In this document: piece after piece, positions 2,054 to 20,488 of the stretch
Layout of the letters: each line of letters starts with the position of its first letter
How positions within the stretch are numbered: the stretch's first letter is position 1
From: a virus
Virus record (IMG/VR): IMGVR_UViG_3300049914_000016
Coordinates: 1-33,499 of that record
Reading direction: 5' to 3' (one strand)
DNA length: 33,499 nt
The notes under the pieces: generated by a model
The model's input: the letters and a program-made list of their open reading frames with translations, nothing else
Told to the model about the DNA's origin: nothing
Database searches by the model: none
Program-made: the position numbers and the translations under genes

Positions 2054-2060
2054 CTGCCCC

Positions 2061-2090: not shown

Positions 2091-2099
2091 CAGAGTAAG

Positions 2100-2128
2100 C
2101 CAAGCATTGGGCGCTTCGCGCGCCTTGG
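2100..2128 (+). promoter_or_regulatory. Leader hairpin abutting a ribosome binding site
   Basis: GGCGC at 2110-2114 pairs with GCGCC at 2120-2124 around a five-base loop. CCAA at 2100-2103 can extend the stem with TTGG at 2125-2128, leaving a six-base bulge. The last GG of the stem is also the start of the GGAGG ribosome binding site (2127-2131) of the gene at 2138. The hairpin may therefore modulate initiation or stabilise the 5' end of the transcript. Formation is predicted by eye only. Confidence 0.35.
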
Positions 2129-2137
2129 AGGACCCCC

Positions 2138-2572: not shown

Positions 2573-2574
2573 GC

Positions 2575-2730
2575 ATGCCCTACGAAATCCGCAAGGTAAG
2601 TGGGGGCTACGCCGTCTTCAACAAAGAGACGGGGGAACGCAAAGAGAAGAAGCCCTACCCGACGAGGGAGGCGGCGCAGGCGCTCATGCGCGCGCTCTAC
2701 CGAGTCATGAATGAGAAGGAGAAGAAGTGA
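2575..2730 (+). CDS. Small basic protein upstream of TerL
   Basis: The product has 51 residues and begins MPYEIRKVSGGYAVFNKETG, ending in a Lys/Glu-rich helix. The opening resembles the short beta-hairpin 'Y-V---GGY-V-N--TG' seen in small phage proteins of unknown role. It starts three bases after the previous stop, and its TGA overlaps the GTG of TerL, so it is probably coupled to TerL. This small gene is easy to miss but fits the spacing exactly. Confidence 0.6.
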   Translation: MPYEIRKVSGGYAVFNKETGERKEKKPYPTREAAQALMRALYRVMNEKEKK

Positions 2731-4280
2731 TCCCATACGTCCAGTGGGTAGAGGGGGAGAAGGGCTTTCTTCTTCAGTCCACATACATGCCGGAGACGGA
2801 CACCTTCGTATCGGGGGGCCGTCTCAAGTTGTTCCCGCTCCAGAAGCGCATCCTTGGTCACTGTCTGACCCCGGACGCCAACGACCACTTCCCCTACACC
2901 ACGATCCTGTACAGCGCCCCCAAGAAGTCAGGCAAGACGACCATCGGTGCTTCTGTCGGATCGTGGTTCCTACAGTGTGGCCCAGCTGGGTCGGAGATTT
3001 ACTCCATCGCCAACGACCAGGAGCAGTCCCTCCGCATCTTCGATGACATCGGCTGGGATGCCTCCATGAACCACGGCATCGTCCCGACCAAGTACCTGCT
3101 GAGATGGCCGGACACAGGATCGTACATCAAGGCCATCGCACAGGAGCACAAGTCCGCAGCTGGTGGTCGACAAGCCATGACGTTGTGGGACGAGCTGTGG
3201 GGCTACACGTCTCCTCGCTCGATGAGCATGTGGGCGGAGATGCAGCCGGTCCCAACCGTGCCCATCTCTCTGCGAGTGGTCGTGACATATGCCGGAACGG
3301 TTGGAGAGTCAACACTACTTGAGGACCTGTACCAGAAGGTCGTGATCGAGGGAGAGCCAGTCCCAGAGCTGGCCGACATCGTTGACAGCGCGGGACGTCC
3401 GGTGTGCTGGCGCAAGGGCCGCATCTTTGCCTATTGGGACACAGAGCCCCGTATGCCCTGGCAGACAGACGAGTACTACGAGACGGCTCTCGACGAGAAC
3501 AGGCCAGCGGACTACCTCCGCCTTCATCGCAACCAATGGGTGACGGGGCTTGAGGAGTTCATCCCGATCGAGATGTGGGATGCCTGCGTCACGCTGGAGA
3601 AGCCGCTCGAGTTCGATCCAGAAGACCCTCGCCACTTCCTGCCCCTGACCGTCGCTGTCGATGCGGGCACCAAGCATGACTGCACGGCGGTCGTCGCCAC
3701 CTACTTCAACCGAGTGATGGGAAAGGTGGGGACGGCTTGGCACCGCATCTGGACGCCTGTAGAGGGTGAGGACTTCGATCTGGAGAACACGGTTGAGCGC
3801 ACCATCATCGAGGCCAAGCAGAAAGGCTTCCGCATCTCCCAGATCATCTACGACCCACATCAGATGCACCGCTCCATGATGACCTTGAAGAAGCTCGGCT
3901 TCAACGTGGTGGAGATGCCCCAGACGGCGGGCAATATGATCGCCGCCAGCCAGAACATCTACAACCTGTTGAAGTCCAAGTCACTTGAGACCTATCCCGA
4001 TGCAGAGTTTCGAGACCACGTGCGCTTCTCTGTGGCTGAGAACAAGGGCAACGGGTTCCGCATCACCAAGGTCGAGACCAGCCAGCACAGTAAGGGGCGT
4101 CGCCCCAATGACGCCATGATCGCCCTGGCCATGGCCGCCTATCACTCCGTTCTCAATCAGGGGGCCGATGTCAGTGCCCCTATCAGAATGGAAGTTCCTT
4201 TCGCGGACGCGTCGGCATGGAAGCCTAAGTCGGCGTCGGACGAGGAGAAATCCCTCCCATGGATGTTCCAAAATGGCTGA
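2727..4280 (+). CDS. terL: Terminase large subunit
   Basis: This 517-residue protein is the DNA-packaging motor and nuclease. The ATPase domain has a Walker A-type loop SAPKKSGKTT at 63-72, Walker B MTLWDE at 151-156 with the catalytic Glu, and a likely coupling motif VVTYAGT near 186-192. The C-terminal RNase H-like nuclease domain shows VAVDAGTKHD (Asp312), IIYDPHQMH (Asp376) and RPNDAMIALAMA (Asp462), the usual three acidic residues. It acts at the portal vertex, cutting concatemers and driving DNA in with ATP. The GTG start overlaps the upstream stop. The last eight bases overlap an HNH gene rather than the portal, which suggests later insertion of that gene. Confidence 0.95.
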   Translation: MIPYVQWVEGEKGFLLQSTYMPETDTFVSGGRLKLFPLQKRILGHCLTPDANDHFPYTTILYSAPKKSGKTTIGASVGSWFLQCGPAGSEIYSIANDQEQSLRIFDDIGWDASMNHGIVPTKYLLRWPDTGSYIKAIAQEHKSAAGGRQAMTLWDELWGYTSPRSMSMWAEMQPVPTVPISLRVVVTYAGTVGESTLLEDLYQKVVIEGEPVPELADIVDSAGRPVCWRKGRIFAYWDTEPRMPWQTDEYYETALDENRPADYLRLHRNQWVTGLEEFIPIEMWDACVTLEKPLEFDPEDPRHFLPLTVAVDAGTKHDCTAVVATYFNRVMGKVGTAWHRIWTPVEGEDFDLENTVERTIIEAKQKGFRISQIIYDPHQMHRSMMTLKKLGFNVVEMPQTAGNMIAASQNIYNLLKSKSLETYPDAEFRDHVRFSVAENKGNGFRITKVETSQHSKGRRPNDAMIALAMAAYHSVLNQGADVSAPIRMEVPFADASAWKPKSASDEEKSLPWMFQNG

Positions 4281-4659
4281 CCTGTGCTGTGTCTGCGGAG
4301 AGAGTCCTCGGGAGTGGCCCGAGAGCGGAAAGAACTATCGTTGCCGATCCTGTCAACAGGAATACGACAGAGAGAAGCAACGTGAGTATAGGGAACGTCT
4401 CCACAACCAGGTAGTAGAGCTCATGGGCGGTAAGTGCGCCCATTGCGGGTATGACGCCGACAAGCGAGTTCTCCAGATTGACCACCTGAATGGTGGCGGC
4501 ACCCAAGAACGCCTGATCATCAAGAGTGTGGGCATCGCGCGCAAGATTCTTCGGGAGGGGACTGATGGTTATCTGTTGCTCTGCCCGACGTGCAACATGA
4601 TCAAGCGCTATGACCTTCACGAGTTTTGTGATGGCAAGAGGAAACCACATGCTTCCTGA
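4273..4659 (+). CDS. HNH endonuclease between TerL and portal
   Basis: The 128-residue product has an N-terminal zinc knuckle (LCCVCGE at 4-10 with RCRSC at 23-27). The C-terminal HNH fold shows KCAHCGY at 54-60, LQIDHLNGGG at 67-76 with the catalytic His71, and LLCPTCNMIKR at 102-112. The family makes single- or double-strand breaks, and small free-standing members often act as homing endonucleases or packaging-associated nickases. The start overlaps the end of TerL by 8 bases and the gene overlaps the portal start by 11. No strong ribosome binding site is seen, so it may depend on translation of TerL. Some phages use an HNH protein with TerL in cos cleavage, a possible alternative role. Confidence 0.9.
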   Translation: MADLCCVCGESPREWPESGKNYRCRSCQQEYDREKQREYRERLHNQVVELMGGKCAHCGYDADKRVLQIDHLNGGGTQERLIIKSVGIARKILREGTDGYLLLCPTCNMIKRYDLHEFCDGKRKPHAS

Positions 4660-6574
4660 ACAACCAACTACCACGGTCCCTGAGTCACAGACGATTGGGC
4701 AGGGCGAAGAGCTCGCCGTAGTCCTTGCACGATACCAACGGGCCAAGGAGAACTGCCGCGTCTGGCACGACCAGATACGCCAATGGCGCAAGCTGTACAA
4801 CTTCGACCACTACCAAGAAGCGGCCAAGCCCCAGGAACAGCAGTACGCCGATCCCACCCCAACCAACACCGTCGACCTCGCCGTAGGCATCTTCGTGGCG
4901 AACGACATGGGATGGAAAGCCTATGGATGGAAGTCCAGCAACGATGAGATGAGGAAATCCAGCCAGGTCGAGAAGTACTTGGCGGGCAACCTCGAAATCG
5001 CCAAGGAGCGCACCCAACTCCACATCACCTACGAAATCACCAAGGACTTCTGCCGAGACGGAGCCGGAGCCATCTATTCTGTCTGGGACCCGATCTATCA
5101 TGAGAAGTACCTGACCCAGTTCGAAATCGCAGACCCCAAGAATCCAGAGGGCGTCACCATGGTGCCGGGGTTCAGGGAGCCTCCGATCCGAACAGAGGTG
5201 GTCGATCCCCTCCAGCTGGCCATGCTCCCTGGTGGAGACAAGCGCTGGGGGCACGTCTTCCGCACGACCGAGATGAACGTCTTCGACATCGAGAAGGTCT
5301 ACGGCATCAGCATTGAGAAGTACCGAGGGATGACCGAAGAGATGAAGATGACGACCAAGGGCAGCGTCATCGAGTACTGGCGTCACGCCGAGCTCGAGAA
5401 GACCCTTAGCTACAACACCGTGCTGGGCAAGCCTGAGACATCGAAGAGCGAAGTCGTCATCATGGGCGTGATCTTCGAGACCCTATGGCTGATACAGCCC
5501 CATGTCATGCAAGGGTACGACGACCTGCCATTCACGATCGGCTTCTTCAAGCCAGTGGACCCCAACGACCCCAAGAGCTGGGGACACAGCATCATGAAGC
5601 CGATGGAGTCGACCATCACCTTGATGGAGCAGGCTGTCAACCGACGCCTGCGCCAGCTGACGATCTTCTCGTCCCTGCCGCTGGTCATCAAGAGCGAGTT
5701 CGGGCGCAAGCTCGACATTGACCCCGGCTTCGGCAACACCCTGCAAATCGCACCCCAGGAGGACGTGGGCTTCCCTGTCTGGCCGGGCAATCCCCCGGAC
5801 TTCAACCAGCATCTTGACTTCCTTCGCTCGAGGCTTCAGCAGTCAGGCTTCTCTGACGTGATGTTCGGCTCCGGGCCGTCCGCCGTGTCTGGCTACGCCA
5901 TGTCCCAGCTGGGCGACCAGAACCGCATCAGGCTCGAGCAGCCCCGCCGACATCTCGAGATGTTCTGGGGCACGTGGGCAAAGAAGATTCTCAGCCTGAC
6001 GTCCAAGTTTGCCAACAACGCAGTCGTGCGCGTGTACGGGCGCATGCGCGGGAAGGACTTCGCTGAGCAGGTCATGGGCTCCGAGATTGCGGAGTACATG
6101 GTCAAGTGCTACATCAAGCCACAGTTCCCGAATGAGCAGACCCGCCGACATGCCATGGCCACCCAGGTCAAGGGCACGCTGTCGACCCGCACGATCATGG
6201 AGAACTACCTCGACATCGAGCAGCCAGATGACGAGATGGATCGCATCCTCGACGAGATGGCTGACAAGCATCCGATCATGCAGCAGTACGCAGTCATGGC
6301 CGTCCTGCAAGAGCGGGCGGACGGTGGAGACAAGGCCGCCATGATGGTGATCCAGCAACAGCAGGCACAGGCTACGGCGGCTCAGGCGGCGGCAGCCCAA
6401 GCATCTACCCCAGTCGAGGGGGCTGGCCCAGGCAACGCCCTTGGCACAGCGTCAGCGACAGGAGCCCCAACTCCCCAGGCCGGAGGCATGCCAGCTCCTG
6501 GTCAAGATGAAGCGGCCCTACTCTCTGAGTTGGCAGGACTGGCTCCACAGATGGCAGGAGGAGGGATCGGATGA
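4649..6574 (+). CDS. Portal protein
   Basis: The 641-residue product would form the dodecameric ring at the DNA entry vertex. I chose the ATG at 4649 because AAGAGG sits 7 bases upstream; an in-frame ATG at 4631 would add six residues. The N-terminal helical region, the long middle with MEQAVNRRLRQLTIFSSLP, and SRLQQSGFSDVMFGSG followed by SGYAMSQLGDQNRIRL are characteristic of portal proteins from environmental and actinobacterial phages. The C-terminal 100 residues are Gln/Ala/Pro/Gly-rich (QQQQAQATAAQAAAAQA), a flexible tail. It directly follows TerL and the HNH gene, and precedes the giant protein and scaffold, as expected. Confidence 0.88.
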   Translation: MLPEQPTTTVPESQTIGQGEELAVVLARYQRAKENCRVWHDQIRQWRKLYNFDHYQEAAKPQEQQYADPTPTNTVDLAVGIFVANDMGWKAYGWKSSNDEMRKSSQVEKYLAGNLEIAKERTQLHITYEITKDFCRDGAGAIYSVWDPIYHEKYLTQFEIADPKNPEGVTMVPGFREPPIRTEVVDPLQLAMLPGGDKRWGHVFRTTEMNVFDIEKVYGISIEKYRGMTEEMKMTTKGSVIEYWRHAELEKTLSYNTVLGKPETSKSEVVIMGVIFETLWLIQPHVMQGYDDLPFTIGFFKPVDPNDPKSWGHSIMKPMESTITLMEQAVNRRLRQLTIFSSLPLVIKSEFGRKLDIDPGFGNTLQIAPQEDVGFPVWPGNPPDFNQHLDFLRSRLQQSGFSDVMFGSGPSAVSGYAMSQLGDQNRIRLEQPRRHLEMFWGTWAKKILSLTSKFANNAVVRVYGRMRGKDFAEQVMGSEIAEYMVKCYIKPQFPNEQTRRHAMATQVKGTLSTRTIMENYLDIEQPDDEMDRILDEMADKHPIMQQYAVMAVLQERADGGDKAAMMVIQQQQAQATAAQAAAAQASTPVEGAGPGNALGTASATGAPTPQAGGMPAPGQDEAALLSELAGLAPQMAGGGIG

Positions 6575-6801
6575 AGACCATAGATCAGCGACTTGACAGG
6601 CTGAAGGGAATCTACTCCGCCTCAGCCGATCGCATGAAGAGCAAGCTCGTCGGCAAATCCGTCGACCCCGACGTCCAGCTGTACGAGAAGATGACGCCCG
6701 CAGCCTTTGATGCTGTCCGAGAGAAGTACGGCGTCGAGGGCCTGACCAGATACATACGCCACATCGAGCACAAGCGCTTGATGGAAGCAGGAGGCAAGTA
6801 A
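6571..6801 (+). CDS. Small helical protein downstream of portal
   Basis: The product has 76 residues and starts at an ATG overlapping the portal stop (ATGA). It is charged and predicted helical throughout (IDQRLDRLKGIYSASADRMK; FDAVREKYGVEGLTRYIRHI). There are no cysteines, membrane segments or recognised motifs. The coupling with the portal gene suggests a virion or assembly role, such as a portal-associated or internal protein, but this is inferred from position only. Confidence 0.6.
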   Translation: MKTIDQRLDRLKGIYSASADRMKSKLVGKSVDPDVQLYEKMTPAAFDAVREKYGVEGLTRYIRHIEHKRLMEAGGK

Positions 6802-6802
6802 C

Positions 6803-7936
6803 ATGTCTAGGATAAAGGAGGAGAGTCTCTTCCAGTCGCAGTGGGACTCCGCACATCCAGTTGCTGTCAGTCAGCCAGTCTATGGCCCTGATACCGATTG
6901 GAGTACGGTGCCGCTGTCCGAACTTTTGGCTATGGGTAATGCTGGCCAGGACATCATGCAGGCGCTTCAGCAGGGCGTTGGCTATGGCTCAGGAGCTATC
7001 ACCCAAGCCCCGGATCAGGCAACTGGTCTAGGCACACAGCCCTACTATGTCGACGCCGCTCTTCAGCAAGGGGTAGCGGCTGGCCAGGAGAACTTTGGTG
7101 CCTGGGATCAGCAGGCTTCTGGCGGAGGCGGTGGGGGCGGAGACATCAACGCTCCACCTGGTGAAACCGATCTGAGCGGCGGTGGCACCCCGTCCAACGC
7201 CTGGCAGGAGACCTATACCCTCCAGAACGCCCCGAGCTGGTGGAGAGGGATGACGGCTCTCGAACAGAATGCCGAGACCGAGTACATCTCCATGATGAAC
7301 AACATGTTGCCGTTCCTCTCCCCCGAGGACCAGCGGACTGTTGCGTCAAGTCTCTACCAGATGCTCCCAGAGTACTTTGGGAGCTACGACCCCAACACGT
7401 GGGAGAAGACAACGCCCGCCGAGTACGAGATCGACCCCGAGACTGGTGAGCCCAAGTTGGATGAGAACGGAAAGCCGATCGTCAAGACACCAGAGCAGGT
7501 TGATCTGAACCCATGGGCTCGAGCAGAGCAGCCGGTCCCGACCTTGCTGATGCAAGAGTACCAGACGACCAAGGCCGCTGAGCAGCAGATGGCCGCCCTT
7601 ATGAACATGGCGAAGTCGATGGGCATCTCTGACCCGAACACGATGATGGGGCCTGGGTTCCGTTACCTACAACAGATTGCAGGAGCGATGAAGTCCTTTG
7701 GTGCTGCTCCCAACCCAGAAGAGGGGTGGACCCGAGCACGGAAGGAGCAGTACATGAACACCATCGACCCACTGCTGGCCTCTACGGGAGGCACCAACAA
7801 CCCGTTGGCCGCCTACAGTACTCTGGCCAAGATGATGACCCAGCCGTACTTCTCGAATGCAGAGCAGCAGCTCATGCCGACGACAGACGCCAACGGCAAC
7901 ATCACGTGGGAGAGCAATCCCCAGTGGTGGAGATAA
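6803..7936 (+). CDS. Hypothetical structural protein, Gly-rich
   Basis: The product has 377 residues, with AGGAGG upstream of the chosen ATG. The N-terminal 150 residues are Gln/Gly/Ala-rich and include a seven-glycine run after QQAS. The rest looks more ordered and helical (SWWRGMTALEQNAETEYISM; FLSPEDQRTVASSLYQMLPE), with a Gly/Lys/Pro-rich loop. No known domain is recognised. Its place between portal and the giant protein suggests a minor virion protein, perhaps internal. Disordered N-terminus and helical core resemble components released with DNA, but this is inference. Confidence 0.6.
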   Translation: MSRIKEESLFQSQWDSAHPVAVSQPVYGPDTDWSTVPLSELLAMGNAGQDIMQALQQGVGYGSGAITQAPDQATGLGTQPYYVDAALQQGVAAGQENFGAWDQQASGGGGGGGDINAPPGETDLSGGGTPSNAWQETYTLQNAPSWWRGMTALEQNAETEYISMMNNMLPFLSPEDQRTVASSLYQMLPEYFGSYDPNTWEKTTPAEYEIDPETGEPKLDENGKPIVKTPEQVDLNPWARAEQPVPTLLMQEYQTTKAAEQQMAALMNMAKSMGISDPNTMMGPGFRYLQQIAGAMKSFGAAPNPEEGWTRARKEQYMNTIDPLLASTGGTNNPLAAYSTLAKMMTQPYFSNAEQQLMPTTDANGNITWESNPQWWR

Positions 7937-7955
7937 CCTAGAAAGGAGGTAGCAG

Positions 7956-8153
7956 ATGGCACAGGCAGAGTTCGAGGTGCGACGCGTGCCGATGACTAGC
8001 ACGCGTGACGCATCGAAGACCATCAACGACATGTTCGCTGATGGCTACGAGCCGGTCATGACCCAGCAGATAGCGAACGACTTGGTCGTGATCTTCCGCA
8101 TCAAGCACAAGCCAGGACGTCCCCCAAAGCAGGAAGCACCGGAAGCGGAGTAA
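7956..8153 (+). CDS. Small hypothetical protein
   Basis: The product has 65 residues and a very strong ribosome binding site (AAAGGAGGT). It reads as a short alpha/beta unit: FEVRRVPMTSTRDASKTIND, then GYEPVMTQQIANDLVVIFRI, then a basic Pro-rich tail. The 'I-----GYEPV' and 'VVIFRIK' segments look like a small domain of the kind seen in phage proteins with a helix followed by a beta hairpin. The role is unknown. It lies three bases before the giant gene and probably shares its transcript. Confidence 0.6.
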   Translation: MAQAEFEVRRVPMTSTRDASKTINDMFADGYEPVMTQQIANDLVVIFRIKHKPGRPPKQEAPEAE

Positions 8154-8156
8154 CGC

Positions 8157-11100
8157 ATGGGCAACGCAGTTCCCCCAGGAACCAAGATCAATGGCTGGAC
8201 GATGTTGGTCGGAAACTCTCAGGCCGACGTCGATTGGGCTACCAACCATCCCAAGCCTTCGGGCACAGCGTCGCGCGAGGTCTTGGAGAAGAACAACTGG
8301 TTCCAAGGGAACACTCAGTCAAATGTTCCTAGCACGTGGATCAACACTCCTCTAGCCGCTCGCACGTCCGCAGCACCACCCCCACCACTAGCCGCTCGAG
8401 CAGCGGTGGGTGGTGCTGCGTTCGACGAGACCATGCCTACTGGCTCTAGGCCAGTCTCAATGGGAGTGCTTCGAGGCAGGACCCTTCGCCCAGAGGCGCA
8501 GGACTACCTTGTCCAGCAGTGGCAGGAAGAGCAGGACAAGGCTCAAGAAGAGTTTTGGAACAGCGACGAGTTCAAGGCGTTGGTGGCCGAAGCGGAGGCG
8601 ACCAAGCCCGGCCAGGAACCAACGCTTTCTCAGGGAGACCCGTTCAAGGGTGTCGTCGGGACAGCTGCTCCAAGGACCACAACCCCGCCCGCCATCGCCA
8701 CCTTGAACGACCTGTTCAAGTTCAAGCCCCCGGCCAAGGACTACAAGCCCTACACCCCGTCTGTCAACATCGGTTTCGCTGAGCCCGGAATGTCGCTGGC
8801 TGCGCAGTCCACTCTCAACTTCTTGCAGACGAAGCCCGCCGAGTTCCTCCCTGGCCAGTACCTCTATGTAGCCCCGGACGGGACGCTCACCAACCGCAAG
8901 ACCTCTCAGCCAGTCTACGTGGACCCGAAGACCGGAGAGATGACGACCTCGCGATTGGGAGAGTCCAATCGGGCAGTCATCCCATTCTCCTCTCCTGGCG
9001 AGACGGGGGCTCTCAATCCTCAGACCGTGACGAGCTTTGAGGGATACCTGCGCTCGAACCGCTACCCTGTCTCCACGATCGAAGAGTGGAACGCATACAG
9101 GGACGATCAGCTGGCGCGCCAGAAGGCGGCTGAAACGAAGGCCACCGAGCAAGACGCTTTCAACAAGGAGCACGGCGAAGAGGTTCAGGCGGCCAGCATC
9201 TCGTCCGCTGCATCCACCATGGGCTTCAATGTCACGCCTCAGCAGTCCATGGGGCTTGTCCGTATGGCTACGCCGGATCAGCCGACTGTGACAGTGCAGG
9301 GGCCGGATGGTCAGCCGCTACCTCTTACGGTCGCTCCAAGCGCCGCGGCCTATTGGACAGAGGGCATGCGGCTATTGTCTGCTGGTCAATATCTGCTCGA
9401 GCAGGCCCCTGTCATTGGGCCACTTCTAGGTGGCGTTGCCGCCTGGACCAGCACGGTCTACAACAAGGCTCTCACCCACATCAACTACAACCTCATGGGA
9501 CTTGGTGGGATCATCCGACCCATCCTGGGGATCGACCGAGTCCAGCCGTTCGCCTATGACCCTCGGACTCTGGAGAAGCTGTCGGACGAACAGGTCTTCA
9601 TGCGACAGCTCTACGGCCTACCCATTCAGTATACCTACGACCCCATGCTCACAGCGGCGCGGGCCTTCAGAGCCGATGCCGCGAACGACGCCGCCTGGAA
9701 GGACATCTGGTCCGGCGACGCGTTCGACAACGGCTACCAGTTCATGTTCAACACGGGGCCTAGGACCGCCCAGGCCGTCCTCGACATCAACGCCGAAATC
9801 ACAGCCAAGATCAACACGCGCGACTCTTATCGTCGACAGGCCGCATCTGCCCTGAAAGCCGGAGACAGTGAGCTGGCCCTCGAGTACACCGTCAAGGCGG
9901 TGAGGCTCGATGGCATCGACCGACCTCTTGACCCGTACTACTACTACTCCTGGTCAGCCGAGCCTTGGCGATACGAGCCGTTCATTCGTGCCGTCGCCCA
10001 GTACGAGCTGAAGCTGGGACGACCTCTCAAGGGCTGGGAGGTCATGAATGTCGCAGACAGGTTTGTCAACCCTGACCTAGAGATGGCGATGGGGGTGATC
10101 TTCGACGTCTCCAACGTCCTGCCTATGCCGTTTGTCGACAAGCTGTTCGGCGGGGCATCGTCTCTGGTCAAGTCCATCCCCGAGTCCCTCAAGTGGGCAG
10201 ACCCGAAGAACTTCAACGCGTTCGCTCGCCTGTACCGATGGAACGTGAGGAAGTCCGCCGAGTCCACTGGGTCATGGGTCACACGCTGGCTGGTGGCCGG
10301 ACCATTTGAGCGCCTAGCACACAAGTCAGAGGCGGAGATCGACGAGGCGTTCGACATCTTCGCTGAGGTGTTCGTCGATCGCAACCCGGCAAGGATGCAC
10401 AGGCTCATCGCCCCTGTCACCGAGGGTGGGCTTGGGTTCTCCAAGAGAGAACTCGACGTCCTTGAGAACATGGTGAAGCTGACCGACAACACGTGGATCG
10501 ACAACCTGCTCAAGCGAGGCTCCATCACGCCGGAGCGAGCTGCTCGCCTCAAGGCCCTGATGGGGCAGATGTCCCCTGCGAACTGGAAGGCCATGCGTCA
10601 GGCAGGCATCAACGCCATTGGGCTTGACAGCCTGGACCGCGAGATAGCGAAGACGGCGAGGCGTCTGGGGGTGTCCGTCCCAGAAGCTGGCTCCGAGGCC
10701 GAGGCCCTGTTCATCAGAGCCAACGCTCTCGACGCGGCCAGCTTGGTGTCCCCTCGCAAGTCCCTGACGGCCTTGGCAGGAGACCTTCGGGAGACATACA
10801 CTCGGGCGCACCGCCCTGTCGCTGGGCTGAACCTCTTCGACGACTCTGTCCTGTACTACCTGGCCTACAAGTCAGGTGTGAGGGCAACCAACAAGAGGTC
10901 GCTCGAGCTCATCCGCACGTTCGTCAAGTCCACCTCAGGACTGCGTAACGTGTGGGTGTTCGCTACGCTGTCCTTGCGCCCTGCATGGTTCGCCCGCAAC
11001 GTCATTGACACGACCTTCCGCATGATGCTTGGCACGCCGGGTGCCGCTCACACCATGGCGCACATCTACGAGATGCTGCCAGAGATGCAGAAGGTGATGA

Positions 11101-14100
11101 CCATTCCCGAGGCCGCCCTGACCACGACCATCACCAGCTCGGGTGAGACCTTCAGGAGCGTTTCGCAGCGGATACTGGCTGGAGAGAAGTTCAACCGCCT
11201 CTCGCCCTTCAAGTTCATGAGCGAAGAGTGGGATGCGTTGAGAGCCATGGCAGGAACGAGGCGGGGCCTCTTCAAGCTGTTCGGCATGCCCACTGACGCT
11301 CTCAAGGCGTTCGGTCGTGGCTTCCAAGACCTGAACACCCTCTACGAGTTCACAGCGCGCACGGCCAAGCTGTGGGAGCTCTACGTCCCCAAGTACGCAC
11401 GGGTGTCCAGCTACGAACTGGCCCAGCTCGCCGTAGCTCTACAGGCAAGGGGCGGAACGGCGGACGCCCTGACTCACCTCACGCTTCTGTGGGAAGCCTC
11501 TGGCAACAACCCAGAACTGCTAGGCCAGATGCTGAGCAGGCTGGTAGGGGGCGATGCGACCGACTCCTACATGTCCATTCTGATGAACGAGACGTGCCTC
11601 AAGGCCATCGCCGGGCTCCCTGTTGAACAGCGGCAGCTCGTGGTGAAGCGTCTGATTGAGGCCGTCGAGGGAGCCTTCTCCCCTGACGAGGCGTTCGATG
11701 TGGTCAAGTTCTTCGATGACTACAAGGCCAGGCTCACAGAGGAGCTCCGCCTCAAGGGTGATCCGACCGTTGAGCTTCAGGGAACCGGCGAGATGGCTGT
11801 CCGAGCATCCGCCCCTGAAGGCATGCCGGTGCGGATGGCAGACCTCACCCAGCATCGTCTGGAGACCGACGCCGACGTAGCCTACTTCATGCATGCCGGG
11901 GGGCCGGACGGTGTAGGCATTCACCCGACAGACCACTACAACGGCCTCGACGATCTGGTGAAGAGGACCGGACTCACTCAGCCGGAGATCGACGACCTGC
12001 TGGAGCGCAACGTCCTCAACGAAGTCACAGTCGAGGGTGTGGCAGGCTATGAGTGGAACCCTCGCATGCAGGACGTCTTTGACCACCACGTCGTCAGACC
12101 TGATGTGCCGTCCGCAAGTAGTGTTGATGATTTCGACAGCCGCATGGACAGGATGGCTGACGACATTGAGGAGAAGGAAGCAAGGGAGGCCGAGGAGCGC
12201 CTCACGGAAGGTGAGATTGGTGGAGAGAGCAGGGCCGCCAGCGGGGAAGACCTCAGGATGCGTCCTACTCTGGACCGGGCTCCTCAACGTCGCTATGTCG
12301 CCTTGAGAGACAGGTGGTCGGTGCTTCGCAAGAGTGCCGAGATGCAGAACGACATCATGGTGAAGCTGCACCCTGAGCTCAAGCCGCGTGCCGACTACAT
12401 CCACAACGCAGCCGACGTTCTCGTGTCAGTCAACCGCCGTGTCCACAACTGGATGAAGTTCCACTACCCAGGCCCGCTAACCCACAGCATCGAGCTGTCT
12501 AGAGTCCTGTGGAGCAAGGCGAACGACATGGCGGCCTTCTTGCAGAGGGGCACCAACACCCTCTTTGAGAAGCTCTCTGGTAGCGTGCTCAGCGGAGCGG
12601 TCGATAAGGAGATCACGGAGCTGGGCGGGAAAGTAGGATTGACTCTCCAGGACATCATGGGTACCTACGGCATGCGTCTGGAGACGACAACCAACGGCGT
12701 CATCAGCGTCCGATGGTTCGACGACGTAGGTGAAGAGATCAAGGGCTGGGCCACGACCAGCCGCTCGAATGTCAACAGTCTCATGAAGGAGATGTTCGGT
12801 GGTGACGTGTATGCGGCTGCGCTGGGCAAGGGTCCGCGCGCCCTGCCGGACGGCTCTCTTCGAAAGCTACTGGAAGACGTCCCTTACAGCGAAGAGCTGA
12901 TCATCGACTTGCAGAAGTACATCCAGACCGGAGAAGTGCGGGGCGATGTGGCCGAGCTGTTCAGTGCGCTACCCGCTACACCGGCGACCCCAAGGAGCAC
13001 CCCTCAGGCAGTGCTCGACAAGTTCCAGGAGTCCATGCCGTCCTACGTTCAGGTGCGGCGTGTGCCATCTCTCCTTGACGACAATGGCCAGGTGCTGCCG
13101 ACCCATGCTCGTTGGATGACTAGGCGCGTCGGGGATCACTTCGAGCTTGTCGTTGAGAATGGAAAGATCGTCCTCGAAGTTGCGGACAACTTTGCTGAGC
13201 TGTCTCCCGAGGGCGTAGCTAAGCTCTTGCAGCACGAGATGGGCCACCCAATCTTCTACGCCTACAAGGATGAGTGCATCCAGCTGTGGGCAGAGAAGAG
13301 GCACTTCGTCACTGGAGCACGTCTGGGTGACAACGTCCAGCTACTGGACGAGCAGGTGGCCAAGGACTTTGCTGTCTACGTCGAACGTGGCTCGACCGGA
13401 GACCCGACGATCGACGCCTTCTTCAAGCGAGTCCTCACCGAAGACGACGACAGCTGGATCGGGGCTACAGCTCACGGCCTGTCGGGATGGGCGCAAAACG
13501 CTCCATCTACTCCGAAGCAGAAGGCTTCTGCCAAGCAGCTGTGGGGAGCCTACACCGCTCAGGCCAACCCGGATGGGTCGACCCTGAGGGAGATGTACGG
13601 CTCTGTGATGTGGCGAGACCGAGAGGTCCTCGAGTCCCCACAGACCCTCCTCGCCTATCTGAGAGAGACGGCCAACGACGCGGCGCGCCTCAAGTTCCAG
13701 AACTCTACGGTGCAGGCGATCAATGAGCAGATCGACCAGCTGACCCGCTTCCTGAACTACGCCGATACGAACTGGGAGAAGCTGGGCATTGAGCGCCCGG
13801 TGGTCAACCGTGGCTACAGCCCAGCCCCTATTCGCAAGTCGATGTACTCTCGGGGCACGATGACCTGGCTGCTGGACAACGAACATGGGGTGGCGAACCA
13901 GGCCCGACTGTTCAGCTTCCTTGATGAGATGAAGAGAGGCATGCTCGAGCAGCTGGGAGCCAACCCCGCTCTCGCGCGCACGCTCCCGAAGGATCAGCTC
14001 GACCTCCTTGCCGAGATCGGCGGGGACGCTGTCGGGGCCAAGGGCCGGGCGGTCGACATCGCCATGAACGGTGGCGAGCACCCAGCGATCGGCACGTGGC

Positions 14101-16961
14101 AAGGAGCCCTTCCGCAGACCAACGAGTACATGCTGGACTACGGAGACTTCTCGAACTTCGACAAGGCGATGAAGGGCATCTACCCCTTCTGGATGTTCCC
14201 GTCCCGCAGCTTCAGCCTGTGGGCAAAGTACCTGATGTCGCATCCATGGCTCCCTGCGATGTACGCCAAGTACACCGACTGGACCAAGCGCACCTTGGTC
14301 TCCGAGGGCTTCTTCAACACGAAGGGCGAGGCCCTGCCGTCGATGGTGGGGATGGTGAAGATTCCTGGCACAGACGTCTGGTTCAACCCGACGTCCGCCC
14401 TGTCCTTCCGCTACCCCATCCAGATTTTCGATCGGCTGGCAAACTACGAGGACGAGGAGTACTCCGACCTCAACCCACTCCAGTCCTTCATGACCAAGTT
14501 CTGCAAGATCGCCCGAGTAGCCAATCTGGACCTGCCGCCGTGGATCATCTGGGGGCTGAACAAGATTGGAGCAGTCGATCCCAACTCACTGCCCAACTAC
14601 GCTCCGTTCGCTCCTCTCCAGCTGATGCCCCGCACCTACATGCTAAGCTTCATGGAGAAGATGCTCAAGGTGGACAGCGGGCCGGTCATGGACTTCATGC
14701 ACCCTGACGTGGGCTGGAAGGACTACCTCGTCGAGACGTGGATGTACGAGGATGCCCTGAAGATCATCATGGACGACACCAAGACCCAAGCGGAGAAGCT
14801 GGCCGCCGTCGACAAGGTGCGGGCCGCATTGGGCTACCAAGAGGACAAGGAGCTGAAGTACGGCAAGGCTGGCTACATCCTCAACCCTCGAGAGAACGAT
14901 CCGTATTGGCAGCAGGCGTCCGCCGCTATCAACAATCAGGAATGGGTCAAGGACACCATCGGCTACTTCACTGGCGTCTTCCCCAAGCCTGGAACCGACG
15001 CCGCCATCTTGATGTACGGCATGAGGAACTACCGCAACTACCTGCGGGACGCCATCAACGATGGCCTCATGACGACGATCTTCAAGCTTGACCCCGACGC
15101 CGAGAGCCGCTACAACGACTACATCGAGAAGGGCTTCAAGACGCCCTATGGCTCCATCGCTGGGTTCTACAACGCTGGGCGCTACGTTCACGCCACAGAC
15201 CCTCGCACGGGCAAGGACCAGACGGTGTATGGGCAAGACCGCCGAGAGCTGATGGCGCTGACCTTGCACGAAGACGTTGTCACCCAGGAGTACTACGCCG
15301 CCATCACCCAGCTGGTCGAAGCTCGAGACAAGGAACTGGAAGGGGTGGCACATGGCGATCGGTCGGCCATCACGAACGACATCTGGACCCGCTACTTCGC
15401 TGCTCGCAAGGCCATCGACGAAGACGAGTTCTACCAGGACGCCCGTCGCACCTGGCTGGTAGGGCACCGCCCTGAGTCCATGATCTTCGATGGCTATCGA
15501 GACCAGTTCTGGATCATGCTCCGCGAGACGTATCCCCAGTGGGACACGGCTAACGACGAGCCCTACGCCGACTACCTGACGAGGGTTGAGCAGTGGCAGA
15601 CAGAGCTTCCCTATCACGCCCAGATGCTGATCAGCGTGATGATGAACGACAACGTCGTCCGAAGCCTGCGCGATCGCGAAGGCAACGTCACCATCGTCAA
15701 TGGCAACGAGGTCCAGCTGGCCGCTGAAGGTGCTGTCGAGCGCTACATCAACCTGGACAAGCTGAAGCTGAAGCTGCTGGAAGAGGCCACGCCAGATGGC
15801 TTTGTGGCATGGCGTGACAGCAACCGATCGCTCTATGCGGCGCAAGACGCCGTCTACGACGAGCTCTACACGAACAAGTTCTACGCAGACACCACAGGGC
15901 TCACCGGCTACGCCCTCGAGGTGGCTCAGGCCGACTGGCTGTCCTCTCACCAGATGCCTACCGAGCAGATGATCCTCGACGCCATCCACCAGAAGTACGG
16001 GGACAAGTGGACAGACGAGCAGATCAGAGAGTCGTGGGAGAAGGCTGACAAGATGTCCATCGCTGAGCGCATGGCTCCTCGTACAGAGGAAGAGGCCATG
16101 AGCCAGGAGGTGTGGGACGTCCTGTCGTGGATCGGGCTGGGCTCAGTCAGTCGTGAGAAGTTCAACATCGCATTGGTGAAGGCAGGCGGTGAGCCTGACA
16201 GCATCCAGACGTGGTACGACACGAGCGGCATGTGGGGGCAGATCGGGGACAGCAAGGTCAACGGCAAGTGGCAGGCGTTCCATGACGCTGTCGTAGCGGC
16301 TGGAGCCAACCTTGGATTGCAGGAGCCATCGCTCGACCAGATGCGCATTCTGGCTCAGGTGCAAGATGAGAACAAGGAGTTCCAGGAGATCGTCAACACC
16401 AAGTTCGGTGAGGACTTCTACACCACCCTGACCGTCTACGGCCTCACGAGCGACAAGACCGAGAAGAAGGCCCTTCGTGCAGAGAACCCCTCGATCGACG
16501 GGTACTACGACGCGAAGGACACCTTTGCCTGTGATCATGAGACGTGGGCCAAGTTCTACTACCCAACCTACCCTGGTTGCAGCAAGTGGGTCGGGCCAGG
16601 GGGCACCGGGTCCACCAACTCTGGTGGTGGTAAGACCAAGAAGGTTGGTGGTGGTGGAGGTGGGGGTGGCGGAGGAGCGTCCGTGTCCGTTGCGGGCCAC
16701 TGGATTCCTCTGGGAGCCCGACGCTCCAACGCAGGCAAGGCCCTAGGGTCTGGCGGGTCCAGCGTGAAGCCCGTGTACCCTGCTGGGTTCGTTCCCGTAG
16801 CGGGCACTGTGGCGGTGTCGGAAATCGAGCGCTTGGCGTCCTCGGCTATCTCTCTGTCCAGTCCGACGGTGAACTGGCTGATGACCCTCAAGCAGCGCCA
16901 CCCTGAGTGGAAGAAGTTCCTCGACGCCCTGTTGACCGACAACAGTACGGTGTCGACATAA
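8157..16961 (+). CDS. Giant virion/ejection-type polyvalent protein with HExxH peptidase motif
   Basis: This single frame codes for 2,934 residues, about a quarter of the window. It starts at an ATG 6 bases after GGAG. Visible parts: a disordered Ala/Pro-rich N-terminus; a hydrophobic stretch at about 415-440 (EQAPVIGPLLGGVAAW); SLRPAWFARNVIDTTF near 940-955; HEMGH at 1693-1697 with Glu1732 in DEQVAKDFA, a gluzincin-like zinc site; KGIYPFWMFPSRSF near 2006-2019; and a C-terminal Gly tract near 2830-2840. The 'RPAW--RN' and 'YPFW' segments recall very large phage proteins packaged and injected with DNA (polyvalent proteins). Its place between portal and scaffold fits an internal protein. No single-subunit RNA polymerase motifs are seen, unlike the N4 giant protein. 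Confidence 0.8.
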   Translation: MGNAVPPGTKINGWTMLVGNSQADVDWATNHPKPSGTASREVLEKNNWFQGNTQSNVPSTWINTPLAARTSAAPPPPLAARAAVGGAAFDETMPTGSRPVSMGVLRGRTLRPEAQDYLVQQWQEEQDKAQEEFWNSDEFKALVAEAEATKPGQEPTLSQGDPFKGVVGTAAPRTTTPPAIATLNDLFKFKPPAKDYKPYTPSVNIGFAEPGMSLAAQSTLNFLQTKPAEFLPGQYLYVAPDGTLTNRKTSQPVYVDPKTGEMTTSRLGESNRAVIPFSSPGETGALNPQTVTSFEGYLRSNRYPVSTIEEWNAYRDDQLARQKAAETKATEQDAFNKEHGEEVQAASISSAASTMGFNVTPQQSMGLVRMATPDQPTVTVQGPDGQPLPLTVAPSAAAYWTEGMRLLSAGQYLLEQAPVIGPLLGGVAAWTSTVYNKALTHINYNLMGLGGIIRPILGIDRVQPFAYDPRTLEKLSDEQVFMRQLYGLPIQYTYDPMLTAARAFRADAANDAAWKDIWSGDAFDNGYQFMFNTGPRTAQAVLDINAEITAKINTRDSYRRQAASALKAGDSELALEYTVKAVRLDGIDRPLDPYYYYSWSAEPWRYEPFIRAVAQYELKLGRPLKGWEVMNVADRFVNPDLEMAMGVIFDVSNVLPMPFVDKLFGGASSLVKSIPESLKWADPKNFNAFARLYRWNVRKSAESTGSWVTRWLVAGPFERLAHKSEAEIDEAFDIFAEVFVDRNPARMHRLIAPVTEGGLGFSKRELDVLENMVKLTDNTWIDNLLKRGSITPERAARLKALMGQMSPANWKAMRQAGINAIGLDSLDREIAKTARRLGVSVPEAGSEAEALFIRANALDAASLVSPRKSLTALAGDLRETYTRAHRPVAGLNLFDDSVLYYLAYKSGVRATNKRSLELIRTFVKSTSGLRNVWVFATLSLRPAWFARNVIDTTFRMMLGTPGAAHTMAHIYEMLPEMQKVMTIPEAALTTTITSSGETFRSVSQRILAGEKFNRLSPFKFMSEEWDALRAMAGTRRGLFKLFGMPTDALKAFGRGFQDLNTLYEFTARTAKLWELYVPKYARVSSYELAQLAVALQARGGTADALTHLTLLWEASGNNPELLGQMLSRLVGGDATDSYMSILMNETCLKAIAGLPVEQRQLVVKRLIEAVEGAFSPDEAFDVVKFFDDYKARLTEELRLKGDPTVELQGTGEMAVRASAPEGMPVRMADLTQHRLETDADVAYFMHAGGPDGVGIHPTDHYNGLDDLVKRTGLTQPEIDDLLERNVLNEVTVEGVAGYEWNPRMQDVFDHHVVRPDVPSASSVDDFDSRMDRMADDIEEKEAREAEERLTEGEIGGESRAASGEDLRMRPTLDRAPQRRYVALRDRWSVLRKSAEMQNDIMVKLHPELKPRADYIHNAADVLVSVNRRVHNWMKFHYPGPLTHSIELSRVLWSKANDMAAFLQRGTNTLFEKLSGSVLSGAVDKEITELGGKVGLTLQDIMGTYGMRLETTTNGVISVRWFDDVGEEIKGWATTSRSNVNSLMKEMFGGDVYAAALGKGPRALPDGSLRKLLEDVPYSEELIIDLQKYIQTGEVRGDVAELFSALPATPATPRSTPQAVLDKFQESMPSYVQVRRVPSLLDDNGQVLPTHARWMTRRVGDHFELVVENGKIVLEVADNFAELSPEGVAKLLQHEMGHPIFYAYKDECIQLWAEKRHFVTGARLGDNVQLLDEQVAKDFAVYVERGSTGDPTIDAFFKRVLTEDDDSWIGATAHGLSGWAQNAPSTPKQKASAKQLWGAYTAQANPDGSTLREMYGSVMWRDREVLESPQTLLAYLRETANDAARLKFQNSTVQAINEQIDQLTRFLNYADTNWEKLGIERPVVNRGYSPAPIRKSMYSRGTMTWLLDNEHGVANQARLFSFLDEMKRGMLEQLGANPALARTLPKDQLDLLAEIGGDAVGAKGRAVDIAMNGGEHPAIGTWQGALPQTNEYMLDYGDFSNFDKAMKGIYPFWMFPSRSFSLWAKYLMSHPWLPAMYAKYTDWTKRTLVSEGFFNTKGEALPSMVGMVKIPGTDVWFNPTSALSFRYPIQIFDRLANYEDEEYSDLNPLQSFMTKFCKIARVANLDLPPWIIWGLNKIGAVDPNSLPNYAPFAPLQLMPRTYMLSFMEKMLKVDSGPVMDFMHPDVGWKDYLVETWMYEDALKIIMDDTKTQAEKLAAVDKVRAALGYQEDKELKYGKAGYILNPRENDPYWQQASAAINNQEWVKDTIGYFTGVFPKPGTDAAILMYGMRNYRNYLRDAINDGLMTTIFKLDPDAESRYNDYIEKGFKTPYGSIAGFYNAGRYVHATDPRTGKDQTVYGQDRRELMALTLHEDVVTQEYYAAITQLVEARDKELEGVAHGDRSAITNDIWTRYFAARKAIDEDEFYQDARRTWLVGHRPESMIFDGYRDQFWIMLRETYPQWDTANDEPYADYLTRVEQWQTELPYHAQMLISVMMNDNVVRSLRDREGNVTIVNGNEVQLAAEGAVERYINLDKLKLKLLEEATPDGFVAWRDSNRSLYAAQDAVYDELYTNKFYADTTGLTGYALEVAQADWLSSHQMPTEQMILDAIHQKYGDKWTDEQIRESWEKADKMSIAERMAPRTEEEAMSQEVWDVLSWIGLGSVSREKFNIALVKAGGEPDSIQTWYDTSGMWGQIGDSKVNGKWQAFHDAVVAAGANLGLQEPSLDQMRILAQVQDENKEFQEIVNTKFGEDFYTTLTVYGLTSDKTEKKALRAENPSIDGYYDAKDTFACDHETWAKFYYPTYPGCSKWVGPGGTGSTNSGGGKTKKVGGGGGGGGGGASVSVAGHWIPLGARRSNAGKALGSGGSSVKPVYPAGFVPVAGTVAVSEIERLASSAISLSSPTVNWLMTLKQRHPEWKKFLDALLTDNSTVST

Positions 16962-16995: not shown

Positions 16996-17041
16996 GAAGT
17001 TGAGTTCGGAACCTTTACAAATCTCCCGAACGGAGGCTCAA

Positions 17042-17854
17042 ATGCCTGATGAAGTAACACCAGTTGCCGTTGGCGGCAACGACGGGGTTGCGTCCGCGAC
17101 GCCCGTTCAAGGTGGGGTTGAAACTACTGCTTCGGCAGTACCCGCGACGCCCACACAGCCAACGAACGATGGGGTGGATTGGCGAGGGCGATACCAAGCA
17201 GATATGGCCAAGGCACAGGCCGATCTGAACGCCCTGAAGTCAAGCCTCCAGTCTCAGAGCTCTGAGATGATGAAGGCCAAGGACCAGGAACGCAAGGTCC
17301 TAGAGCAAGAGCTCCACAAGATGCGGATGGCGTCGATGGATGCGCCGGAACGCTCCCAGTACGAGCTCGACATGGCCAAGAACGAACTCAGTGAGCTGAG
17401 AGGACAGTTGGAACAGGAAAGGGCTCGAGCGAATGAGCTCAGCTCTGTGGGTTCCATTGTCCAGTCTTTCGCGCGCATGGGGATTCCATCCAACATGCTC
17501 GTGCTGGATCAAGGCACTGACGCTCTTGCCGAGAGCGGCTGGCGGGCCGTGGTCCAGAAGATGAACTACCTAGAGAATGCGGTCAAGGGGACTCAGCGCC
17601 CAATCGCGCCGAACCAGCCCGTTCCCGCTACGCCAGCAACAACCAATCAACAGCCTGGGACGTATACACCGCCTCAGGTCGCTCCGCCCGCAGGCGGACC
17701 CGTCACGACGGGCCGCACATGGGGATCACTCTTGACCACTCTGAAAGCTCAGACTGGCAACGAGTGGACGGAGGAGGAAGTGTACAGGGCAGTGGAGAAC
17801 GGCAGGCTACCGCCCGACATCCTCCCTGGTATGGAGAACATGCCCAAAGGCTAA
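17042..17854 (+). CDS. Capsid scaffolding protein
   Basis: The product has 270 residues. The ATG at 17042 has CGGAGG six bases upstream; a TTG at 17000 is in frame but would fall at the predicted transcription start. The N-terminal 50 residues are low-complexity. Residues about 50-140 form a long coiled coil (DLNALKSSLQSQSSEMMKAK; AKNELSELRGQLEQERARAN). A Pro-rich linker follows, then a small C-terminal domain ending NMPKG. A coiled-coil core with a short C-terminal domain directly before the major capsid gene is the classical scaffold arrangement. It would guide shell assembly and then leave the head. The name rests on architecture and synteny. Confidence 0.8.
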   Translation: MPDEVTPVAVGGNDGVASATPVQGGVETTASAVPATPTQPTNDGVDWRGRYQADMAKAQADLNALKSSLQSQSSEMMKAKDQERKVLEQELHKMRMASMDAPERSQYELDMAKNELSELRGQLEQERARANELSSVGSIVQSFARMGIPSNMLVLDQGTDALAESGWRAVVQKMNYLENAVKGTQRPIAPNQPVPATPATTNQQPGTYTPPQVAPPAGGPVTTGRTWGSLLTTLKAQTGNEWTEEEVYRAVENGRLPPDILPGMENMPKG

Positions 17855-17889: not shown

Positions 17890-18897
17890 ATGTCCGTCCT
17901 CAACGCTTCTGAGTACTCAGATGCCATCTTCGTCCAGTACGAACGGCGTCTGCTGACTCGTGCTCTGCCTCGACTGATCCACAATCGCTTCGGCGCGCAG
18001 GCACGTGTCAACCGTGGCCTCGGCTCTCTCCAGTTCCGCAAGTACGCAGGACTGAGCGCGATTTCGTCCGCTCTCTCGTCCGGCGTGACCCCTGTGGAGA
18101 ACATCGCCCCGGCTCTCTCGTCCGTGAGTGTGACCCCGCTGTGGTACGGTGCGTGGCTGGGCTACACCGACAAGATCGACATGATCGGCTTCGACCCCAT
18201 CGTGCTTGAGGCATCAGGCATTCTGGGCGAGCAGGCTGGCCTCTCGATCGACACGCTGACCCGCGACGTCCTCGTGGCAGGTGCCACTGATGACTTCGCC
18301 AATGGCGCGGCATCCCGCGCTCTCCTGGACTCAGGCGACAAGATCGGCTACGTCGACTTCCTGATCCAGATCGCAGAACTCGAAGCGGCCAATGCTCGTC
18401 CTCTCGCGAACGGGCGCTACGCCGTGATCCTCCACCCGTACTCGTGGGCAACGCTGATGCAGGACCCAACCTTCGTCACGCTGTTCACCCGTGAGGCAGG
18501 TGGGGCCAGCAATCCGCTTCGCTCGGGGATTGTCGGAACGATCCTGAACTGCGACGTGTACGTCTCGAGCAACGCTGCTTCCTACACCTCAGCTGGTGTC
18601 GGCTCGGCGTTCACGGCTTACTCGGCCCTGTTCATTGGGGCGGAAGCCTACGGCTCCTACGGCATCGCTGACCTGACGCCCAATGTCAACGTCGACGGTG
18701 GCGGGGTCGAGGTCAAGAACATGACCGGGCAGAGCGTCAAGCCTGTCTCGATCATCGTGAAGGAACTCGGCTCGGCAGGCACGAGCGACCCGCTGAACCA
18801 GCGTGGCACGATCGCGTGGAAGCTCACGCACATCGCCGCCATCCTGAACTCGGCGTGGATTCGTGACCTGGAGCACCTGAACGACTTCAGCGCCTAA
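17890..18897 (+). CDS. Major capsid protein, N4-gp56 family
   Basis: The 335-residue shell subunit would have the HK97-like fold. Family-like segments are TPLWYGAWLGYTDKIDMIGF, GEQAGLSIDTLTRDVL, the 'Y-VILHP-----L--DPTF' stretch, GAEAYGSYGIADL and the C-terminal DPLNQRGTIAWKLTHIAAIL. These match the N4-gp56 family of major capsid proteins as I remember it. The scaffold immediately upstream agrees. The ribosome binding site is oddly weak: only CAGG about 12 bases before the ATG, so initiation may rely on coupling to the scaffold gene 35 bases upstream or on another signal. The 133-base gap after it is highly structured. Confidence 0.9.
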   Translation: MSVLNASEYSDAIFVQYERRLLTRALPRLIHNRFGAQARVNRGLGSLQFRKYAGLSAISSALSSGVTPVENIAPALSSVSVTPLWYGAWLGYTDKIDMIGFDPIVLEASGILGEQAGLSIDTLTRDVLVAGATDDFANGAASRALLDSGDKIGYVDFLIQIAELEAANARPLANGRYAVILHPYSWATLMQDPTFVTLFTREAGGASNPLRSGIVGTILNCDVYVSSNAASYTSAGVGSAFTAYSALFIGAEAYGSYGIADLTPNVNVDGGGVEVKNMTGQSVKPVSIIVKELGSAGTSDPLNQRGTIAWKLTHIAAILNSAWIRDLEHLNDFSA

Positions 18898-20400: not shown

Positions 20401-20463
20401 AGCATGGGGGGATAGGGCCAGACCCCGAAAAGCGGCAGTCCTGAACCGCCTGCCCCCCGTGCT
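20401..20463 (+). other. Structured intergenic RNA upstream of the HNH gene (three-way-junction-like)
   Basis: AGCATGGGGGG (20401-20411) pairs with CCCCCCGTGCT (20453-20463), 11 bp with one G-U pair. Within it, GGG (20415-20417) can pair with CCC (20423-20425), and GCGG (20432-20435) with CCGC (20446-20449), giving a closed three-way junction with an unpaired GAAAA linker. There is no following T-run. It could be a terminator or barrier between the capsid genes and the HNH gene, or a structured leader of the HNH mRNA. It has the same general plan as the element at 18921 but no clear sequence similarity. Confidence 0.5.
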
Positions 20464-20464
20464 C

Positions 20465-20488
20465 CTTGATACTACAGGAGGTATCGAG
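20465..20488 (+). promoter_or_regulatory. Hairpin holding the HNH ribosome binding site in its loop
   Basis: CTTGATAC (20465-20472) pairs with GTATCGAG (20481-20488), eight base pairs including one G-U. The eight-base loop TACAGGAG carries most of the AGGAGG ribosome binding site of the HNH gene, whose ATG is at 20489, directly after the stem. This arrangement would reduce translation on long transcripts. Hairpins that mask the ribosome binding sites of homing endonuclease genes are known from phage T4, for example I-TevI. Confidence 0.6.

What the first reader, a model, noticed from the sequence alone, without database searches (positions are those of the whole stretch)
8157..16961. 2,934-residue virion-type giant protein with an embedded zinc-peptidase site
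One uninterrupted frame of 8.8 kb sits between portal and scaffold. It contains HEMGH (1693-1697) and, 35 residues on, DEQVAKDFA with Glu1732. This is the HExxH plus E-x-x-A arrangement of gluzincin-like peptidases such as ImmA/IrrE. Segments near 940 and 2009 resemble very large phage proteins injected with DNA. A protease delivered with the genome could cut a host factor, or process the polyprotein itself. Giant injected proteins are known; this combination within an N4-gp56 capsid phage seems unusual.
Basis: partly seen in the sequence, partly recalled or inferred. Interest (0 to 1): 0.65.

Follow-up and report, generated by a model that had tools for sequence, protein, structure and literature searches.

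The report
Giant phage virion protein carrying peptidase
This phage gene encodes a 2,934-residue protein of a previously unnamed family of giant proteins, probably packed into the virus particle, whose two ends are conserved while the middle carries exchangeable enzyme domains; here the only recognisable one is a zinc peptidase of a kind already known from giant virion proteins of other short-tailed phages.

Summary
In detail: one open frame (8157-16961, 2,934 aa) with HEMGH at 1693-1697 and Glu1732 in E-x-x-A-x-x-F. The peptidase domain is very probably real. A profile of 17 phage zincins built without the window aligns HExxH to HExxH and Glu to Glu (hhalign 72%, score 37; shuffles at most 24). 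The predicted fold puts HExxH and Glu1732 on two confident helices behind a small sheet; its structural matches are almost all M34-type zincins (lethal factor, PPEP; Z at most 5.4), not ImmA/IrrE. The protein belongs to a family found here in more than 20 uncultivated phage contigs, after terminase and portal where the contig reaches that far. It has a conserved N-arm (about 700 aa), a conserved C-arm (about 950 aa) and a variable middle (480-2,500 aa) that carries zincin (8 of 23), ADP-ribosyltransferase, GGDEF or helicase domains. This is the cargo of the "polyvalent proteins" described in 2017, and zincins in giant virion proteins are known from BPP-1 and N4, so the combination is not unusual. 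New here are the unnamed conserved arms with exchangeable cargo. Most likely role: self-processing of the delivered polypeptide; cutting a host protein is the main rival. Neither was tested.

The parts
8157..16961 (+). giant protein gene, 2,934 aa
   Evidence: in-frame homology to giant ORFs in more than 20 viral contigs
9705..11900 (+). N-arm (residues 517-1248), conserved in the family; LSLRPAW motif at residue 938
   Evidence: profile A3, 5 rows
11901..14096 (+). variable middle (residues 1249-1980), the cargo region, 733 aa here
   Evidence: no conserved match between the arms; length 484-2521 aa in relatives
12984..13470 (+). zincin-like peptidase domain (residues 1610-1771)
   Evidence: alignment A8, AlphaFold model me1c7f9ca4b1b, structural matches to M34 zincins, hhalign
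13233..13247 (+). HEMGH (His1693, Glu1694, His1697), predicted zinc ligands and general base
   Evidence: helix at model residues 75-93, block pLDDT 81-88
13350..13352 (+). Glu1732, predicted third zinc ligand, on the E-x-x-A-x-x-F helix
   Evidence: invariant in A8; helix at model residues 114-135, block pLDDT above 90 from residue 121
14097..16958 (+). C-arm (residues 1981-2934; pairwise homology begins near 1838), with PFWMFPSRS at residue 2010
   Evidence: profile A2, 4 rows
2727..4280 (+). terminase large subunit
   Evidence: phrog_9, E 2e-38
4610..6574 (+). portal protein
   Evidence: P22_portal and phrog_156/64, weak but consistent
17000..17854 (+). probable scaffold protein
   Evidence: phrog_172, E 3e-4; position before the capsid gene
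17890..18897 (+). major capsid protein (phrog_1357)
   Evidence: E 5.5e-35; PHROG 1357 is named an N4-gp56 family capsid protein in PMC13299392

Best explanation
The gene encodes a giant, probably virion-packaged protein that works like the polyvalent proteins of Iyer et al. 2017. Two conserved arms (about 700 aa and 950 aa) carry it into or through the particle, and a middle segment carries exchangeable enzyme domains. In this member the only recognisable cargo is a zincin (HEMGH plus Glu1732), lying just before the C-arm. Most likely mechanism (inferred): once the protein is in the head, or after ejection into the host, the zincin cuts the polypeptide itself and frees parts from the arms. 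Steps shown here: the family, the arms, the variable middle, the predicted zincin fold and its conserved residues. Steps inferred: packaging, ejection, catalysis and the choice of substrate. Confidence is about 0.85 for the identity and 0.4 for self-processing.
For: Family and arms: profile hits in more than 20 viral contigs with terminase-portal-giant order. Cargo: ART-PolyVal, GGDEF and a helicase in the middles of relatives. Zincin: invariant H, E, H, E, F in nine aligned copies (one of them, L157, is doubtful). hhalign of 17 zincins without the window against the window: probability 72%, score 37.3, against 23.8 for the best of 100 shuffles and 22.9 elsewhere in the protein. Models with helix-sheet-HExxH helix-Glu helix order. 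Structural neighbours: the first ten rows and 20 of 21 rows are lethal factor or PPEP (M34). Precedent for zincins in giant phage proteins: BPP-1 Bbp10, N4 gp50, other phage proteins of 2,000-3,200 aa. Iyer et al. propose self-processing for such zincins and cite processing of P1 DdrB. Zincin-bearing relatives have longer middles (p 0.008, not corrected for kinship).
Against: No evidence of packaging, ejection, zinc binding or cleavage. The window's middle is short (733 aa) and holds no second recognisable enzyme, so there is little visible cargo to free. N4 gp50, which also has a zincin, is packaged unprocessed (PMC5512222). With too few independent pairs, the link between zincin and long middles is not established. 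Structural Z-scores are modest (at most 5.4), the Foldseek E-values themselves are not significant, and the catalytic residues could not be superposed.
Confidence: 0.55

Rival explanations
1. The zincin is an effector: delivered with the DNA, it cuts a host protein (defence, stress or regulatory factor), and the arms only deliver it.
For: The middles carry other host-acting enzyme types (ART, GGDEF). Zincin presence is scattered over the C-arm tree, needing 8 changes with at least 4 forced by well-supported branches, as expected for host-dependent cargo. The window's zincin is its only recognisable cargo. The structural neighbours include substrate-specific proteases.
Against: No substrate is indicated. 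The domain co-occurs with an ART in 4 of 8 cases, as expected for a processing protease.
Confidence: 0.3
2. The zincin processes the protein during head assembly, before packaging (as proposed for P1 DdrB), so the virion holds fragments.
For: P1 DdrB is cleaved before packaging (PMC5512222). The gene lies among head genes (portal, scaffold, capsid).
Against: 15 of 23 relatives have no recognisable zincin, so the arms do not need it for assembly.
Confidence: 0.2
3. The domain is a structural relic without activity, as in lethal factor domain I.
For: The structural matches fall on the first domain of lethal factor, which is inactive (own knowledge). Relatives carry zincin-derived stretches without HExxH (L016, L022, L067, L114).
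Against: All four ligand/catalytic residues are kept in the window although the rest of the domain has diverged far.
Confidence: 0.1
4. HEMGH and Glu1732 are a chance motif in a helical protein.
For: HMMER-level similarity is very weak (5.8-10 bits). No Pfam, PHROG or PDB sequence match.
Against: Expected HExxH 0.037. Independent hhalign, fold prediction and the same position before the C-arm as in L016 and L022.
Confidence: 0.05

Closest known systems
Polyvalent proteins (Iyer et al. 2017, PMC5512222)
   Same: Giant phage proteins that combine MPTase (zincin), ART, GGDEF and helicase domains in one chain, in virion gene neighbourhoods; Pfam ART-PolyVal is met in relatives.
   Different: The two conserved arms match no Pfam model. 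The window's own protein shows only one enzymatic domain.
Bordetella phage BPP-1 Bbp10 and phrog_9880 (CLCA_X-type zincin, PMC3650047)
   Same: A giant protein (2,052 aa) annotated as part of the structural cassette, with the same zincin clade: a profile of four relatives' zincins hits Bbp10 at 62.9 bits.
   Different: The arms are not detectably related. The gene lies after the tail and internal virion genes, not between portal and scaffold. The window's own zincin is more diverged than its relatives' and is not hit by phrog_9880.
Coliphage N4 virion RNA polymerase gp50 (PMC12633501)
   Same: 3,500 aa, HExxH domain followed by about 1,100 mostly helical C-terminal residues; ejected with the DNA. 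Its zincin (HELVH) is about as weakly matched by the phage zincin profile (9.6 bits) as the window's.
   Different: No RNA polymerase domain found here. The C-arm has no significant similarity to N4 C2 (hhalign probability 0.1%).
M34 peptidases (lethal factor, PPEP)
   Same: Nearest solved folds to the predicted domain.
   Different: Low Z (at most 5.4) and 13-22% identity; secreted proteins with no phage context.

Membership tests
Polyvalent proteins (Iyer et al. 2017) | Large phage- or plasmid-encoded protein with two or more domains of disparate biochemical activity in one polypeptide | tested here: inconclusive
   Window: one recognisable domain (zincin); no Pfam hit in the rest. Relatives in the same family meet it: L016 ART+GGDEF+zincin, L074 ART+zincin, L159 ART+zincin.
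Polyvalent proteins (Iyer et al. 2017) | Virion/head gene neighbourhood in phage-type members | tested here: met
   Between portal and scaffold/capsid genes in the window; terminase-portal-giant order also in relatives.
Polyvalent proteins (Iyer et al. 2017) | Delivered into the host with the DNA | not testable with these tools
   Needs virion proteomics and ejection assays.
Zincin-like MPTase of polyvalent proteins | HExxH on one helix, distal Glu on the next conserved helix, three-stranded sheet and N-terminal helix before them | tested here: met
   Predicted models show this order: HExxH helix at model residues 75-93, Glu1732 helix at 114-135. Distances to zinc could not be measured.
Zincin-like MPTase of polyvalent proteins | Sequence relationship to that clade (Bbp10/CLCA_X type, phrog_9880) | tested here: inconclusive
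   hhalign 72%, score 37.3 against at most 23.8 in shuffles, but no hit by phrog_9880 in G000 and only 5.8-10 bits by HMMER.
ImmA/IrrE (M78) peptidases | Match to the Pfam peptidase model | tested here: not met
   No Pfam family at E up to 1 for the whole protein or E up to 0.1 for the middle alone.
M34 peptidase fold (lethal factor/PPEP) | Same fold by structural alignment | tested here: inconclusive
   The first ten rows and 20 of 21 rows, but Z at most 5.4, below the level the tool calls safe.
N4-like virion RNA polymerase | RNA polymerase domain and related C-terminal domain | tested here: not met
   No Pfam or PHROG RNAP match. C-arm against N4 C2: hhalign probability 0.1%. No PDB sequence match of the arms.
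MuF-type head proteins | MuF domain in the gene between portal and scaffold | tested here: not met
   No Pfam match in the giant protein or in the 377-aa ORF 6803-7936.

The most novel reading that the evidence does not exclude
The two conserved arms are an undescribed protein-delivery chassis of a large group of uncultivated phages: a packaging/ejection frame into whose middle the phages swap effector cassettes (peptidase, ART, GGDEF, helicase, unknown ones), with the gene held at a fixed place between portal and scaffold.
Probability: 0.35. Interest if true: 0.65.

Novelty: new variant of a known kind. Interest (0 to 1): 0.42.

Why it matters
Giant injected phage proteins are a reservoir of unknown anti-defence and host-takeover enzymes. 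A family with recognisable fixed arms gives a way to cut out and catalogue the cargo between them. If the arms are a true delivery frame, they show which parts of such proteins are for transport and which are for attack. The zincin question (self-cutting or host-cutting) becomes directly testable with one point mutant.

Tried and rejected
(1) Whole-protein searches of Pfam, PHROGs, GenBank phages and the first viral-contig scans found nothing; relatives came only through the terminase and then the PFWMFPSR DNA pattern. (2) Bacterial/archaeal genomes: pattern hits there show no C-arm similarity, so no host could be named. (3) A first MAFFT alignment of long zincin regions misplaced HExxH; shorter segments fixed it. 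(4) PDB sequence searches with the zincin or arms gave nothing meaningful. (5) Foldseek alone was not significant; no M78 (ImmA) fold was listed, which does not exclude it. (6) Homology of the C-arm to N4 gp50 C2: the only alignment falls on the PFWMFPSRS motif region but is not significant; kept as a lead. (7) A base-composition break at the zincin, as a sign of recent acquisition, is absent: GC 0.60 against 0.59-0.63 elsewhere in the gene. (8) HEESH in L157 was aligned as a ninth zincin but is not hit by the profile; left as doubtful. (9) The association of zincin with cargo length or ART cannot be separated from kinship. (10) Membrane-spanning segments in the arms: no 19-residue window of the window's protein exceeds mean hydropathy 1.23, so no clear transmembrane helix.

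Full report
Observation. The window is a 33,499-base virus record. ORF 8157-16961 encodes 2,934 aa without interruption. HEMGH lies at 1693-1697 and Glu1732 follows in DEQVAKDFA. By composition 0.037 HExxH are expected in this protein. Neighbours are terminase (phrog_9), portal (weak P22/phrog_156), a 377-aa ORF of unknown kind, a scaffold-like ORF and a phrog_1357 capsid protein, so the stated gene context holds.

Relatives. The protein itself has no match in Pfam, PHROGs or GenBank phages, and its C-arm none in plasmids. Its terminase led to related contigs in which giant ORFs of 3,264 and 3,734 aa sit after the portal. A conserved C-terminal motif, PFWMFPSRS, turned into a DNA pattern, found 19 viral contigs, 17 of which carry the family. 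A terminase alignment returned 80 loci, many with a giant ORF in the same place. None was found in bacterial genomes, and relatives' C-arms also find nothing among the 50,697 GenBank phage records. The family is therefore known here only from uncultivated phages.

Architecture. Two regions are shared: an N-arm (window residues 517-1248) and a C-arm (1981-2934). Between them lies a middle of 484 to 2,521 aa in which Pfam recognises ART-PolyVal (L016, L068, L074, L159; weakly L152), GGDEF (L016, L153) and a helicase of the Strawberry-notch/SNF2 kind (L154). These are cargo types listed for polyvalent proteins (PMC5512222). The window's middle (733 aa) shows only the zincin.

Zincin. Copies with HE[LM][GS]H or near variants occur in eight of 23 proteins with a C-arm. 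Alignment A8 has His, Glu, His, Glu and Phe invariant; one row (L160) has HExxxH, a form also described by Iyer et al. The window's copy is diverged. A four-sequence profile gives 10.0 bits against at most 2.1 in 300 shuffles, and a 17-sequence profile 5.8 bits against at most 4.7 in 1,000 shuffles. Profile-to-sequence hhalign is clearer: probability 72%, score 37.3, with HExxH on HExxH and Glu on Glu, against 22.9 in the next best part of the protein and at most 23.8 in 100 shuffles. The second AlphaFold model (nine sequences, mean pLDDT 72.7) has an N-terminal helix, short strands, the HExxH helix (75-93) and the Glu1732 helix (114-135, pLDDT above 90 over most of it). Z is at most 5.4, so the fold assignment rests on agreement rather than on any one score. 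I could not measure the distance from Glu1732 to the HExxH helix.

Known relatives of the domain. The zincin of a family member hits giant proteins of about 1,970-3,210 aa in isolated or named phages, among them Bordetella phage BPP-1 Bbp10 (HESGH; the profile of four family zincins gives 62.9 bits). Bbp10 is annotated as part of the structural cassette and was a seed of the CLCA_X zincin family (PMC3650047). N4 gp50 has HELVH in its C1 domain, followed by about 1,100 residues without known structural relatives (PMC12633501), a layout like this one. A zincin inside a giant virion protein is therefore an established theme.

Exchange. On a tree of the C-arm, zincin presence needs eight changes, no fewer than shuffled labels, and at least four are forced by well-supported branches. 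The window's closest terminase relatives whose contigs reach the whole gene have no zincin that the profile recognises. The domain is cargo, gained or lost repeatedly, not part of the frame.

Mechanism. Shown: family, arms, variable middle, predicted zincin with complete active-site residues. Inferred from known cases: packaging in the head and ejection. Most likely action: self-processing, the role Iyer et al. propose from P1 DdrB and from domain mixing. Against it, N4 gp50 is packaged whole and the window has little visible cargo, so a host-directed protease remains close behind (0.3). Dead-domain and chance readings are unlikely.

Verdict. The ImmA/IrrE label and the claim of an unusual combination do not hold. 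What is new is the unnamed family with conserved arms and exchangeable cargo at a fixed place in the head gene cluster, a new variant of a known kind.

Noticed in passing
L005:5842-8205, L147:4270-7530, L143:1844-4552: Terminase large subunits of relatives are interrupted: Pfam intein splicing domain in L005 and L147, LAGLIDADG endonuclease domain in L147 and (weakly) in L143. The window's terminase (517 aa) has no such insertion.
   Followed up: partly
L016 residues 1723-1817, L022 1699-1789, L067 1559-1612, L114 1950-2057: Second, zincin-like stretches that keep the E-helix part but have lost HExxH: apparently degenerate copies within giant proteins of the family.
   Followed up: partly
L161:582-2507 and 2489-8713; L160:13422-18245 and 777-13418: Giant gene in two overlapping or adjacent frames (2,075+642 aa; 1,608+4,214 aa): frameshift, assembly error or real split.
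   Followed up: no
L136 end and L152 start (same contig, G033, 66,311 bases): Giant ORF open at both contig ends (2,069 and 2,814 aa); if the contig is circular the protein would exceed 4,800 aa.
   Followed up: no
window 20405-20478 (+): Rfam int-alpA RNA match just at the gathering score (35.9 vs 35.8 bits).
   Followed up: no
window 31286-32146 (+): Protein with a concanavalin A-like lectin domain (Laminin_G_3, E 3e-12), a candidate receptor- or sugar-binding virion protein.
   Followed up: no
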